DNA of 43,821 bases from Candidatus Aenigmatarchaeota archaeon (GTDB taxonomy: Archaea; Aenigmatarchaeota; Aenigmatarchaeia; GW2011-AR5; JAHLMP01), in NCBI GenBank assembly GCA_018920315.1, contig JAHLMP010000007.1:1-43821 (forward strand). The letters run 5' to 3'. This document shows, in pieces, positions 13,702-35,917 of this stretch (positions are counted from its first letter, which is position 1; each line of letters opens with the position of its first letter). A model generated the notes under the pieces. It had not been told where the DNA came from. It worked only from the letters and a program-made list of their open reading frames with translations, and did no database searches. The position numbers and the translations under genes were made by a program.

Positions 13702-15177
13702 TTATAAAATGCTTCTTCTGATTTTCTTTTCCAATTCCTTTATTCTATTTTCAACTATTTGTGAAGCTTCCTCTTTACTTTTTACTTTTCTCAGATCATT
13801 TGCAAGCTTTTCATCCTTTATTACATCTCTTACCCAATTGCTAAAGTCGTTTTTCTCATTATTTGCATGGTAGCTATAAGTTTCATTGCTCATATTCTTT
13901 AGCCCGTCTCTTAGCTCGTATAAGTTTTTAAATACCTTTCCATCGTGGCACCAAAAAATATCGCTAAAATCACTTAAAATTCTTAAAGCCTCTTCTTTCT
14001 TCATTTCAGCTTCACCTCTCAATCTTTGTTTTATATCATTTATTATATTCATAAATATTATAAAGGCTTCATAAGGTGAATCATAAGGATTGAAATATTT
14101 ATGCACATCGCCATCAGCAAACCATTTTGTACACATATAATAAAAATGATCGGCAGTTTGTAATTTTCTCCATGCATCTATTATATTTCTATCTTTTGTT
14201 GCCAAAATAGCTTGCTCTAAACTATAAAGCTCATTTAAAGCAAATTGTTGCATCTTATTTCCTATCCATGCAGTAAGATCTCGCTCAGTATCTGCCCAAG
14301 AAACGTAGTTTGGAAAATCTAAATCTGCTACGGGCTTAAATTTCTTTATTGCTTCAGAAGGCAAAACAAAATCTATTCCTCTTTTCAGTGCTTCTATAGG
14401 AAATTCTTCTAAAAATTCAAATATACCGCTCTCTTTCCACTGATGTTCTCCAAATGTTTCATAGTCCATAAAAATGTTGACAATATCGCCTTGAACTTGA
14501 GACACCCAACTAATATATTTATCTGGAGTTAGTGGCCATTCGCTCCATGAGCTATTTGAAAATCTAAAAGCTATGTCATCGCTCAACCTATAATGTTTTA
14601 AGAGCAAAATGATGTTAGCATCTTTTGCTTTATATAAGAAGCATGGTGATCTCCACTCCAAAATTTTATCGGCCCCTTCTGCTAATATTGCTTTATAACC
14701 CAAAGATTCTACAATTTTTCCTATTTGATTTTGATAAACTAACTCAGTATTTCTAAAAATCTTTGGCTTCTTTCCAAAAATTTCCTTGAGCTTTTTCTCA
14801 TGCAACTTTATTTGTGCAACAAACTCTTTTAAAGAATATATACTCGCAAGCGAATGATAATATGTTTCTCCGACAAGCTCTGCGCAACCAGTTTTTATAA
14901 TTTTTTCGAATGACTCTATAACATGAGGATATTCTTCTAATTGTTCAAGTAAAGTTCCTGTAATACTAAAACTTATCTTAAATCTTCCATCAGTTTTATG
15001 AATTAGCTCTAAAATTATTTTGTTTGTAGGCAAGTAACTTTTTTCTATTATTCTTTCTAAGTATAATTTATTTCTTTCTTTATCGAAATAGTCTATATCT
15101 TTACCAATATCGAAGAATGTAAATCTTTTTAGTCTTATTGGTTGATGAACATGAAGATAAAAACATATGCTAGCCAT
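13702..15177 (-). CDS. GH57 family alpha-amylase / glucanotransferase-like hydrolase
   Basis: A 491-residue glycoside hydrolase of family 57, acting on alpha-glucans. Motifs in order are LHVHQP (residues 8-13), GETYYHSL (103-110), IFRNTELVY with the nucleophile E145, and MDYETFGEHQW with acid/base D238. A helical C-terminal domain follows, with SWADTERDLTAWIGN. The layout fits the Methanocaldococcus-type amylase annotation. Intracellular, as no signal peptide is seen. ATG 15177 is chosen over 15198 because GGTGAG sits just upstream and because it lies 4 nt after the preceding gene's stop, so the two genes are translationally coupled. Confidence 0.85.
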   Translation of the reverse strand: MASICFYLHVHQPIRLKRFTFFDIGKDIDYFDKERNKLYLERIIEKSYLPTNKIILELIHKTDGRFKISFSITGTLLEQLEEYPHVIESFEKIIKTGCAELVGETYYHSLASIYSLKEFVAQIKLHEKKLKEIFGKKPKIFRNTELVYQNQIGKIVESLGYKAILAEGADKILEWRSPCFLYKAKDANIILLLKHYRLSDDIAFRFSNSSWSEWPLTPDKYISWVSQVQGDIVNIFMDYETFGEHQWKESGIFEFLEEFPIEALKRGIDFVLPSEAIKKFKPVADLDFPNYVSWADTERDLTAWIGNKMQQFALNELYSLEQAILATKDRNIIDAWRKLQTADHFYYMCTKWFADGDVHKYFNPYDSPYEAFIIFMNIINDIKQRLRGEAEMKKEEALRILSDFSDIFWCHDGKVFKNLYELRDGLKNMSNETYSYHANNEKNDFSNWVRDVIKDEKLANDLRKVKSKEEASQIVENRIKELEKKIRRSIL

Positions 15178-19738: not shown

Positions 19739-21472
19739 TTATAGTTTCTTTATTTCTTTTATTTCTTCTAATAGCTTTTTCTCTTCCTCGCTTAGAATAT
19801 TTTCATATTTCTTTAATGTTGCATAACTATTTTCATCTATATTTGAAAATAATATATCATTTTCAAAAATATTTCTACCGACAACAGCATTGGTAATAGA
19901 GATTGCAACCTTCATACCTTTGGTTGCAATTGATAAATTAACGCCTTTATCTTGTATCTCTTTTATTTTTCCTAATTCTATTATTTTTTTATCCTCTACT
20001 TTAAACAAATCATAATCACCTTTTATTCTTCCTTCTAATATCTCGCAGCCGACTATTGCTGGCTTGCTTGCTCTAAAAATATATCCTGGAATTATTCTTA
20101 TCTTTGCGGGAAAAACAACATTTTCTAGCTCTTTTTCTAAAAGTTCTTTTTTCTTTTCTTCTTTCCATTTCATATAATTTTCAAAAAGTTCGTAGATTAT
20201 ATCTGAGCTTATAATTTTCACTCCATTCTCTTTTGCTATTTTATTTATTTCTTCACTACTCTTTATATTGAAAGCAATAATAACTCTTAGAAAAATGTCT
20301 GAGTTTATACTTGCTTCTAAGATATCTTCTTTTGTAACCTCCCCTATATCACAATATTTAATCTTGAAATCTTTGAAAATATTTTTCAAGGCATCGAGCG
20401 CTCCCAATGTGTCTGCCTTTAGAATCATTCCTTCCTCTTTTTTAATAGTAAAATCTTGTGAGTATTTCTTTTCTAAATCTTTTGCAATAAGTTCAGCTTT
20501 TCTAATATCTTTTGTCAAAAAGAATTCAAATCCTGCTATTATATCTTCTGTGTCTTGAACCAATAATTTTACTCCATAAGAAGCTTCTATAAAATTTACA
20601 TTCTCAAATGTTTTCTCTACTCTTATGTCTTGGATTTGTTTTGGAATTAAAATCGCTCTTATCTTTGTTATCTTTGCTTTTTTACCAAATGTCACTAAAT
20701 AATCTCCAACTTCTATTTTTCCATCTATTAATATCGCGTCTATTGTCTTTCCTAATCCTTTAACATCCTTTATTTCTAATATGACCCCACAAGAATTTTC
20801 AGTTTTTAACAAAAATCTTTTTAGAAATTTTTCAGACAAACCGGCAAGAATATATAGAAGTTCTGGAATACCTTCGCCGGTTTTAGCACTTATAGGCACT
20901 GCCGCTATTTCTTTTGTGAAGTCGCTTACCCTATCGAATCTTTCACCCTTAAGGTTAAATTTTTCTAACTCGCTTATTATTTCATAGAATCTTTTTTCAA
21001 ATTCTATTTTCACGTTCTCATTTTGATAATTATAATTTTCCAAAAAGCTTTGGGAAATTGACTTCCAACCATGAAATTTATCAATTTTATTTACCGCGAG
21101 CACAAAAGGTGTTTTACTTTCTCTCAAAAGCTCGATACATTCTTTTGTTTGTTGCATAAAACCTTCTAAAATATCAACAACAAGTATAGCTATATCTGCA
21201 ATCTTACAACTTCGCTCGCGCATGCATTTGAATGCTTCATGCCCTGGGGTGTCGATAAACAACAAACCTGGAATGGAAGACTCAAAACTTCTAAATTTTT
21301 TGCTTATACTCTTTATCAAACTCATTGGAACAAATGTAGAGCCTATCGATTGTGTTATCTGTCCAGCTTCTTTGTCTGCTACTCTCGTATTTCTAATTCT
21401 GTCTAATAATGTTGTTTTTCCATGGTCTATATGACCCATTACTGTGATTATGGGCGATCTGTACATAAACAA
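19739..21472 (-). CDS. infB: Translation initiation factor aIF5B
   Basis: A GTPase that joins ribosomal subunits and checks initiator tRNA. Visible elements are G1 GHIDHGKTT (13-21), G3 DTPGHEAF, G4 NKID (about 127-130) and SAKTGEG. Beta-barrel domain II, alpha/beta domain III (AIIIFNIKSSEEI-type region) and the C-terminal barrel with FRASKPAIVGCEILEG follow. At 577 residues it is near the archaeal norm of ~600 and has no intein. ATG 21466 is an alternative start. It is the neighbour of the split initiator tRNA genes, its functional ligand. Confidence 0.95.
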   Translation of the reverse strand: MFMYRSPIITVMGHIDHGKTTLLDRIRNTRVADKEAGQITQSIGSTFVPMSLIKSISKKFRSFESSIPGLLFIDTPGHEAFKCMRERSCKIADIAILVVDILEGFMQQTKECIELLRESKTPFVLAVNKIDKFHGWKSISQSFLENYNYQNENVKIEFEKRFYEIISELEKFNLKGERFDRVSDFTKEIAAVPISAKTGEGIPELLYILAGLSEKFLKRFLLKTENSCGVILEIKDVKGLGKTIDAILIDGKIEVGDYLVTFGKKAKITKIRAILIPKQIQDIRVEKTFENVNFIEASYGVKLLVQDTEDIIAGFEFFLTKDIRKAELIAKDLEKKYSQDFTIKKEEGMILKADTLGALDALKNIFKDFKIKYCDIGEVTKEDILEASINSDIFLRVIIAFNIKSSEEINKIAKENGVKIISSDIIYELFENYMKWKEEKKKELLEKELENVVFPAKIRIIPGYIFRASKPAIVGCEILEGRIKGDYDLFKVEDKKIIELGKIKEIQDKGVNLSIATKGMKVAISITNAVVGRNIFENDILFSNIDENSYATLKKYENILSEEEKKLLEEIKEIKKL

Positions 21473-21541: not shown

Positions 21542-21593
21542 TAGCGGGGGGTGGATTTGAACCACCGACCTCCGGGTTTCTAACGAGTCCGCC
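21542..21593 (-). tRNA. Split initiator tRNA-Met, 3' half gene with leader
   Basis: Read on the minus strand, a 16-nt leader GGCGGACTCGTTAGAA (21593-21578) precedes tRNA positions 38-73 (21577-21542). These are A38, CCCGG (anticodon-stem 3' strand), AGGTC variable loop, GGTGG-TTCAAAT-CCACC T arm, CCCCGCT acceptor strand and discriminator A; CCA is not encoded. The 5' anticodon-stem strand CCGGG is missing upstream, so this is not a complete tRNA. The leader pairs with the trailer of the 5' half at 21675, and GA-A/A-ACC gives a 3-nt AA|A bulge for the splicing endonuclease. A TATA-like TTTTAATTATA lies about 22-24 nt before the leader. Confidence 0.85.
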
Positions 21594-21674
21594 TAATTAA
21601 TGCTTTATCTATAATTAAAATGAAAGATTTAAATATGATATAAGAGACTAATTAATAATAGCACTCTTAGGCAT

Positions 21675-21747
21675 AGCGGGGTAGAAAGCTTTTTTAGCTT
21701 GCCTAAAGCAGCCTGGAGTGCTCGCCGGGCCCATAGCGTGGTCCGCC
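21675..21747 (+). tRNA. Split initiator tRNA-Met(CAT), 5' half gene with trailer and D-arm intron
   Basis: It encodes AGCGGGG (acceptor strand, perfect match to CCCCGCT of the 3' half), TA, then after removal of a 22-nt intron the D arm GAGC-AGCCTGGAGT-GCTC, G26, CCGGG and CCCATA (32-37, anticodon CAT at 21732-21734). The trailer GCGTGGTCCGCC (21736-21747) is complementary to the 3'-half leader (GTCCGCC/GGCGGAC plus further pairs). Joined product: 75 nt, with A1:U72, three G:C pairs at 29-31/39-41 and C33, hallmarks of initiator tRNA. The A37|G cut falls in a 3-nt bulge TA|G. A T-rich tract follows the trailer. Confidence 0.87.
21685..21706 (+). other. 22-nt BHB intron within the 5' tRNA half, between positions 10 and 11
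   Basis: Excising AAAGC...CCTAA restores a four-pair D stem (GAGC/GCTC). Its fold is a bulge-helix-bulge: outer hairpin AAGCT/AGCTT closing a TTTTT loop, central 4-bp helix GGGT/GCCT (two wobbles), and 3-nt bulges AG|A and AA|A with symmetric cuts. The exon-side outer helix is weak, as in relaxed noncanonical archaeal introns. Confidence 0.75.
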
Positions 21748-21896
21748 ATTTTCTTTTTTATTTTACTATGTTCATTTTAACCTATTTTTATACATTTAGC
21801 TATTTTTATCTGAAATAAAATGTTAAGCGAAGAGAATAGAAATAACTATAATAATACTTATTCTTGAGAACTTTCAAAGATTATTACCTAAATCTT
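21748..21896. other. Spacer after the 5' tRNA half
   Basis: An AT-rich gap with a T-rich tract (21749-21765), likely the terminator of the 5' tRNA half. The rest shows no gene, repeat or RNA fold that I can support. Confidence 0.4.
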
Positions 21897-35802: not shown

Positions 35803-35917
35803 TGGGCGTGCGAGGATTCGAACCCCGGACCCCCAGCTTGCTTCGTTCTCATCATTTATCAGAGCTTCTATGTTTACATAGAAGGCTGGTGCTCTATCCA
35901 AGCTGAGCTACACGCCC
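35803..35917 (-). tRNA. tRNA-Arg(TCT) with 40-nt intron at 37/38
   Basis: Acceptor GGGCGTG/CACGCCC, D arm GCTC-AGCTTGGATA-GAGC, anticodon stem CCAGC/GCTGG and loop CTTCTA|A give anticodon TCT. The T arm is CGGGG-TTCGAAT-CCTCG with discriminator A; no CCA is encoded. The intron spans 35878-35839. A canonical bulge-helix-bulge fits: central helix CTTC/GAAG with perfect pairing, bulges TA|T and CA|A. Confidence 0.95.

What the first reader, a model, noticed from the sequence alone, without database searches (positions are those of the whole stretch)
21542..21747. Trans-split initiator tRNA-Met encoded by two half genes on opposite strands, ~80 bp apart
Seen directly: a 5' half (+, AGCGGGG ... 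CCGGGCCCATA) and a 3' half (-, ACCCGG ... CCCCGCT A) that join into a full tRNA with seven perfect acceptor pairs and five anticodon-stem pairs. The trailer GTCCGCC and leader GGCGGAC are complementary, and extra pairs extend the helix. Both junctions sit in 3-nt bulges (TA|G and AA|A) as the splicing endonuclease needs. The four-position central helix is weak (2 of 4 pairs). Known: split tRNAs, including an initiator, occur in Nanoarchaeum equitans, and others in Caldivirga. Inference: divergent close pairing from one promoter region may be a snapshot of how a tRNA gene was split by local inversion.
Basis: partly seen in the sequence, partly recalled or inferred. Interest (0 to 1): 0.9.

Follow-up and report, generated by a model that had tools for sequence, protein, structure and literature searches.

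The report
Split initiator tRNA, divergent half genes
A tiny uncultured archaeon appears to encode the tRNA that starts every protein as two half-genes on opposite DNA strands that must be spliced together as RNA, while its nearest sequenced relative has the gene in one piece, so the locus looks like a recent case of a gene being broken by a local DNA inversion.

Summary
A 5' half (+, 21675-21735) and a 3' half (-, 21542-21577) rebuild a canonical archaeal initiator tRNA-Met. Trailer and leader share a perfect 7-bp GC-rich helix, about 1 in 20,000 by chance. One thing was missed: the 5' half carries a 22-nt cis intron in its D arm, so maturation needs two splicing events. No intact initiator gene was found in the 713-kb assembly. 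In 156 genomes of the class no other opposite-strand pair was seen; the only other genome held of its family (G001) has an intact gene. The split is therefore recent and lineage-specific. The genome encodes a three-unit, epsilon2-type splicing endonuclease (Micrarchaeum/ARMAN-2 type), RtcB and RNase P RNA. It lacks reverse gyrase and its 16S rRNA is about 51% GC, so it is probably not a hyperthermophile, unlike the hosts known as of 2011. The same genome has a permuted tRNA-Ile(GAU) with a textbook splice motif and many cis introns; a 2014 review knew of no organism with both split and permuted tRNAs. Weak points: the junction bulge-helix-bulge has 2 of 4 central pairs and is not the predicted minimum-energy fold, there are no RNA data, and the inversion is inferred. 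New variant of a known kind.

The parts
21675..21684 (+). 5' half, exon 1: acceptor 5' strand AGCGGGG plus TAG (positions 1-10)
21685..21706 (+). 22-nt cis intron in the D arm (AAAGCTTTTTTAGCTTGCCTAA); bulge-helix-bulge GGGU AG|A AAGCU...AGCUU GCCU AA|A, 4 of 4 central pairs counting two G-U; G033 has an intron at the same position
   Evidence: read; fold; G033 (L050); motif assigned by hand
21707..21735 (+). 5' half, exon 2: D arm and anticodon arm up to A37 (anticodon CAT at 21732-21734)
21736..21747 (+). 3' trailer of the 5' half, GCGTG-GTCCGCC; last 7 nt complementary to the 3'-half leader
21748..21767 (+). T-rich tract (15 of 20 T), likely terminator of the 5'-half transcript
   Evidence: 0.17% of 20-nt stretches in the window reach this
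21542..21577 (-). 3' half: positions 38-73 (ACCCGGAGGTC...CCCCGCTA), discriminator A73, no encoded CCA
21578..21593 (-). 5' leader of the 3' half, GGCGGAC-TCGTTAGAA
21594..21674 (.). 81-bp, about 20% GC divergent promoter region; palindromic TATA-like ATTTAAAT at 21627-21634 faces both halves; second TATA-like box TTTAATTATA (- strand) at 21610-21619 faces the 3' half
   Evidence: promoter assignment inferred
21615..21624 (.). arm TTAAAATGAA of a candidate inversion repeat; partner TTCATTTTAA at 21771-21780
   Evidence: could be chance
21771..21780 (.). partner arm TTCATTTTAA of the candidate inversion repeat
19739..21472 (-). neighbour: translation initiation factor aIF5B/IF-2, about 70 bp downstream of the 3' half in the same direction

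Best explanation
This is a trans-spliced (split) initiator tRNA-Met gene in a Micrarchaeota-like archaeon. The two halves are transcribed divergently from the short AT-rich region between them. In the 5' transcript a 22-nt D-arm intron is removed in cis. The GC-rich trailer of the 5' half pairs with the leader of the 3' half, while the acceptor and anticodon stems also pair across the halves. The epsilon2-type splicing endonuclease cuts after A37 and before A38, and RtcB joins the ends. RNase P is expected to trim the 5' leader. The state is derived: a collinear gene, probably with a canonical 37/38 intron, was broken when a small segment carrying the promoter and the 5' half was inverted next to aIF5B after divergence from G001. 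Shown: the halves, the complementarity, the absence of another copy in the assembly, the intact gene in the sister genome, the presence of the enzymes. Inferred: promoters, splicing, order of steps, inversion.
For: The joined tRNA is canonical, with A1:U72 and GGG/CCC anticodon-stem pairs typical of initiators, and fits all 22 stem pairs; two differences from G001 (7:68 and 30:44, alignment columns) are compensated across the split. Trailer/leader helix. The only two initiator-like pieces in the 713-kb assembly are these halves; all other hits of an initiator covariance model lie at other tRNA genes, and elongator Met is a separate gene, L020. G001 (same family) has an intact gene at 92% identity. 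Class survey: 117 of 156 genomes match, none other with halves on opposite strands; 31 partial cases inspected were not opposite-strand either. Epsilon2 endonuclease matches 4fz2 at E=8.6e-107, with the catalytic Y/H/K and the loop Y-K pair named in PMC12397907 kept. RtcB, RNase P RNA. T-rich tract after the trailer. Reverting the flip gives a collinear gene.
Against: The junction bulge-helix-bulge is degenerate: 2 of 4 central pairs, and 12.5 kcal/mol above the predicted best fold. Cis introns of G007 and G035 also have 2 of 4, and this enzyme type is reported to accept relaxed motifs (PMC12397907). The assembly is a MAG, 86% complete by marker genes, so an intact copy in the missing part is not excluded. 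No RNA data. Promoters are not clear against the AT-rich background. If the flip occurred at the 10-bp repeats, the ancestral intron would contain a T-rich terminator-like run, which is awkward.
Confidence: 0.87

Rival explanations
1. Assembly artefact or inversion polymorphism: most cells carry an ordinary cis-intron initiator gene, and the assembly shows a flipped minor or chimeric form.
For: Flipping one 166-bp segment restores a collinear gene with an 82-nt intron. Short inverted repeats flank the segment.
Against: The best flanking inverted repeat is only 10 bp, too short to mislead a k-mer assembler, and the longer AT-rich pairs are imperfect. The ancestral intron would contain a T-rich terminator-like run.
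Confidence: 0.07
2. The halves are relics: a pseudogene broken by inversion, with a working initiator gene in the unassembled part of the genome.
For: The assembly is rated 85.9% complete. The splice motif is weak.
Against: No invariant position has decayed and all stem pairs hold. Trailer/leader complementarity is kept. No other copy in the assembly. Marker completeness is usually underestimated in ultrasmall archaea (general knowledge).
Confidence: 0.05
3. The split is ancestral, a primitive half-gene state kept in this lineage (as Di Giulio proposed for Nanoarchaeum).
For: The break lies at the 37/38 site also used by cis introns of relatives.
Against: G001 (same family) and the examined genomes of the class have cis genes, so a recent break is far more parsimonious.
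Confidence: 0.01

Closest known systems
Nanoarchaeum equitans split tRNA-iMet (Randau 2005; table in PMC3218864)
   Same: Initiator tRNA; junction 37/38; complementary trailer and leader; two separate transcripts; similar 3'-half precursor size (about 52 there, about 52 predicted here).
   Different: There the halves are about 32 kb apart, RNase P is absent, the endonuclease is a heterotetramer and the host is a hyperthermophile. Here the halves are 81 bp apart and divergent, the endonuclease is epsilon2 type, RNase P RNA is present and the 5' half has its own cis intron.
Thermosphaera aggregans split tRNA-Asp (PMC3218864)
   Same: Adjacent halves on opposite strands; 37/38 junction; a relative with an uninterrupted gene; local rearrangement proposed as cause.
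   Different: Halves are convergent there, divergent here; different tRNA, phylum and endonuclease type; no extra cis intron is listed there.
Aeropyrum pernix split tRNA-Asp (PMC3218864)
   Same: Adjacent halves, 37/38 junction, likely derived from a cis-intron gene.
   Different: Same strand in A. pernix, with some read-through; here read-through cannot make a tRNA.
Thermofilum pendens permuted tRNA-iMet (PMC3218864)
   Same: Rearranged initiator gene in an archaeon.
   Different: Permuted in one transcript, not split. The permuted gene in the present genome is tRNA-Ile.
ARMAN-2 (Ca. Micrarchaeum acidiphilum) epsilon2 splicing endonuclease, PDB 4fz2
   Same: Three-unit architecture, catalytic triad and loop Y-K pair conserved.
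   Different: I found no report of a split tRNA in an organism with this enzyme type in the papers held.

Membership tests
Split (trans-spliced) tRNA | Two separate transcription units encode the 5' and 3' parts | tested here: met
   The halves lie on opposite strands, so one transcript cannot contain both
Split (trans-spliced) tRNA | Parts join into one complete canonical tRNA | tested here: met
   22/22 pairs, all class-invariant positions kept, joined fold
Split (trans-spliced) tRNA | Complementary GC-rich trailer and leader | tested here: met
   7-bp perfect core; 1 of 20,000 random window pairs as stable; hairpin test z = -4.7 with an artificial AAAA loop
Split (trans-spliced) tRNA | Bulge-helix-bulge at the junction | tested here: inconclusive
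   Possible with 2 of 4 central pairs, not the best fold
Split (trans-spliced) tRNA | No contiguous copy of the same tRNA in the genome | tested here: met
   within an assembly rated 86% complete
Split (trans-spliced) tRNA | Each half has its own promoter | tested here: inconclusive
   Palindromic ATTTAAAT and other TATA-like boxes between the halves; background too AT-rich
Split (trans-spliced) tRNA | Splicing endonuclease and RtcB ligase encoded | tested here: met
Split (trans-spliced) tRNA | Joined mature RNA observed | not testable with these tools
   No RNA data
Archaeal initiator tRNA-Met | Anticodon CAU, A1:U72 pair, three G-C pairs closing the anticodon stem | tested here: met
   elongator Met is a separate gene (L020)
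Permuted tRNA gene | 3' part upstream of 5' part on the same strand | tested here: not met
   Opposite strands in the window; but met by tRNA-Ile at G000:C6 about 14390-14510
Intron-containing (cis) tRNA gene | Both parts collinear in one transcript | tested here: not met
   Opposite strands for the 37/38 junction; met only for the small D-arm intron inside the 5' half

The most novel reading that the evidence does not exclude
One small, probably non-hyperthermophilic Micrarchaeota genome combines all three kinds of disrupted tRNA gene: multiple cis introns, a permuted tRNA-Ile(GAU), and a trans-split initiator tRNA whose 5' half also carries a cis intron. The split and the permuted gene both arose after divergence from a family-mate with linear genes, and the split arose by a single small inversion. 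A permissive epsilon2 splicing endonuclease would make such breaks nearly neutral.
Probability: 0.6. Interest if true: 0.82.

Novelty: new variant of a known kind. Interest (0 to 1): 0.74.

Why it matters
Whether split tRNAs are ancient or recent has been argued since Nanoarchaeum. Here an essential single-copy tRNA is split in one genome and intact in its family-mate, and one small inversion explains the geometry, so the 'recent' answer can be tested step by step. It extends split tRNAs to a new phylum, to a new endonuclease type (epsilon2) and probably to non-hyperthermophiles; the 2011 survey linked them to hyperthermophiles and to heterotetrameric enzymes. Coexistence with a permuted tRNA would fill a gap stated in a 2014 review (PMC3978253). 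It also shows how gene finders miss an essential tRNA: ARAGORN and Rfam at its curated cut-off report nothing here.

Tried and rejected
Intact copy elsewhere in the genome: not found. Chance pairing: rejected. Alternative junction 36/37: gives at most 1 of 4 central pairs by hand, so 37/38 is kept. Synteny of initiator and aIF5B in G001: absent, its gene lies beside rtcB, so flanking genes cannot date the inversion. Reading the direction of the ancestral promoter from relatives: too AT-rich to decide. Inverted repeat as proven break point: not significant, 47 of 300 shuffles. Naming the organism through genome contigs: the aIF5B query returned only unrelated bacteria; placement rests on the endonuclease match. 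Viral contigs hold no copy of the 3'-half junction. The direct repeat CATAGCGGGGT/CATAGCGTGGT (21672, 21732) was noted, but a 10-of-11 match in 700 bp is expected by chance. I did not pull the whole genome piecewise, since the tool declines to lay it as a file.

Full report
What is there. On the + strand 21675-21735 encodes AGCGGGGTAG, a 22-nt insert, then AGCAGCCTGGAGTGCTCGCCGGGCCCATA. On the - strand 21577-21542 encodes ACCCGGAGGTCGGTGGTTCAAATCCACCCCCCGCTA. Joined without the insert they give a 75-nt tRNA with 7/7 acceptor and 5/5 anticodon-stem pairs. Against initiators of 11 relatives (several spliced by hand) all 22 stem pairs hold and every invariant column is kept. Anticodon CAU, the A1:U72 pair and the GGG/CCC anticodon stem mark it as an initiator. 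ARAGORN finds no tRNA in the window, and Rfam at its gathering cut-off finds only another tRNA at 35803-35917.

Extensions. After A37 the 5' half continues GCGTG-GTCCGCC and then a T-rich tract, 15 T in 20, seen in 0.17% of 20-mers. The 3' half is preceded by GGCGGAC-TCGTTAGAA. The two form a 7-bp perfect core plus outer pairs. One of 20,000 random window pairs of these lengths was as stable (leader shifted by one base). Folded as a hairpin with an artificial loop the pair is 4.7 sd below shuffles.

The overlooked intron. The insert 21685-21706 fits a bulge-helix-bulge with 4 of 4 central pairs (two G-U) and a 5-bp intron helix (read by hand). G033 has an intron at the same place (L050). So this split tRNA needs one cis and one trans splicing reaction. 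I found no statement of such a case in the papers read, but the original Caldivirga paper was not read.

The weak point. At the trans junction the canonical motif has C-G and A-U but also C.A and C.U, 2 of 4. In a nearest-neighbour model the best fold instead pairs U36-A37-G with the leader (-30.0 against -17.5 kcal/mol). Cis introns at 37/38 in relatives range from 2 to 4 of 4, so 2 of 4 is at the low end but not unique. The enzyme type present is reported to accept relaxed motifs such as bulge-helix-loop (PMC12397907).

Machinery. The genome encodes a 410-aa endonuclease covering the ARMAN-2 epsilon2 enzyme 4fz2 almost end to end (E=8.6e-107). By the alignment its catalytic Tyr, His and Lys and the Tyr-Lys of the ARMAN-specific loop are kept. 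RtcB and archaeal RNase P RNA are present. No reverse gyrase passes its cut-off and the 16S rRNA is 51% GC, which argues against a hyperthermophile. Chan et al. 2011 noted that all split-tRNA hosts then known were hyperthermophiles and tied the trait to heterotetrameric endonucleases.

Only copy, and recent. A covariance model of class initiators finds in this genome the two halves and otherwise other tRNA genes. BLAST of the joined tRNA finds only the halves. G001, the only other genome of the family held, has an intact contiguous gene, 92% identical, beside rtcB. Across 156 genomes of the class, 117 match and no listed pair other than this one lies on opposite strands of a contig; 31 regions with partial matches were read, and where both parts were recognised they were on one strand with introns. 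Two stem differences between G000 and G001 (7:68, 30:44) are compensated across the present break, although they may predate it.

How it may have arisen. Flipping 21615-21780, bounded by TTAAAATGAA and TTCATTTTAA, restores promoter, 5' half, 82-nt intron and 3' half in one line, just upstream of and codirectional with aIF5B. A single small inversion therefore explains the divergent geometry and why trailer and leader are complementary: they are the two sides of a former intron stem. The particular repeat is not significant (47 of 300 shuffles), and a T-rich tract would then have lain inside the old intron, so the exact break point is open. The palindromic ATTTAAAT (21627-21634) could serve both directions after the flip; this is inferred.

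Wider context. The same genome holds a permuted tRNA-Ile(GAU) at G000:C6 about 14390-14510: 3' part, CTAT, 5' part, junction 30/31, with central helix CGUC/GACG (4 of 4, read by hand) and outer helix GCUGCACAG/CUGUGCAGC. G001 has a linear tRNA-Ile(GAU) with a 37/38 intron. With many cis introns, T-loop introns included, this genome shows all three disruption types. A 2014 review stated that no organism with both split and permuted tRNAs had been reported (PMC3978253), and searches of later held papers gave none. Subscription papers are mostly not held, so priority is not certain. Nanopusillus and Nst1 lack split tRNAs.

Verdict. Real, and most likely a functional split initiator tRNA of recent origin. 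It is a member of the split-tRNA kind on every sequence test except the junction motif and the promoters, which are inconclusive. It is a new variant: divergent adjacent halves, a cis intron inside one half, an epsilon2 endonuclease, and coexistence with a permuted tRNA.

Noticed in passing
L024 (G000:C6 about 14390-14510): Permuted tRNA-Ile(GAU): 3' part, CTAT, 5' part on one strand, junction 30/31 with a perfect hand-read bulge-helix-bulge; G001 has a linear gene with a 37/38 intron.
   Followed up: partly
L064 (G000:C9:3163-3441): Second, alpha-type splicing endonuclease gene (212 aa) in which the catalytic Lys (VRK in relatives) reads IRA; possibly a non-catalytic subunit.
   Followed up: partly
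L011-L017, L021, L025 and others in G000: Many tRNA genes have introns inside the T loop (GTTCG followed by an insert), often with similar ends such as AAGCGATTTTC; this looks like a family of spreading introns.
   Followed up: no
L067 (G000:C6:49859-51516): The 16S rRNA gene carries an intron-like insert near its 3' end (after GGGGGTCATC).
   Followed up: no
L111 (G013:C8:895-1253): Initiator tRNA of a relative with an intron of about 285 nt at 37/38 that seems to encode a small nuclease-like protein (..EVFLIEFKKPGQ..).
   Followed up: no
L034 (G001:C29): The initiator tRNA gene of G001 sits directly upstream of rtcB, the tRNA-splicing ligase gene, whose reading frame appears to carry an intein.
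   Followed up: no
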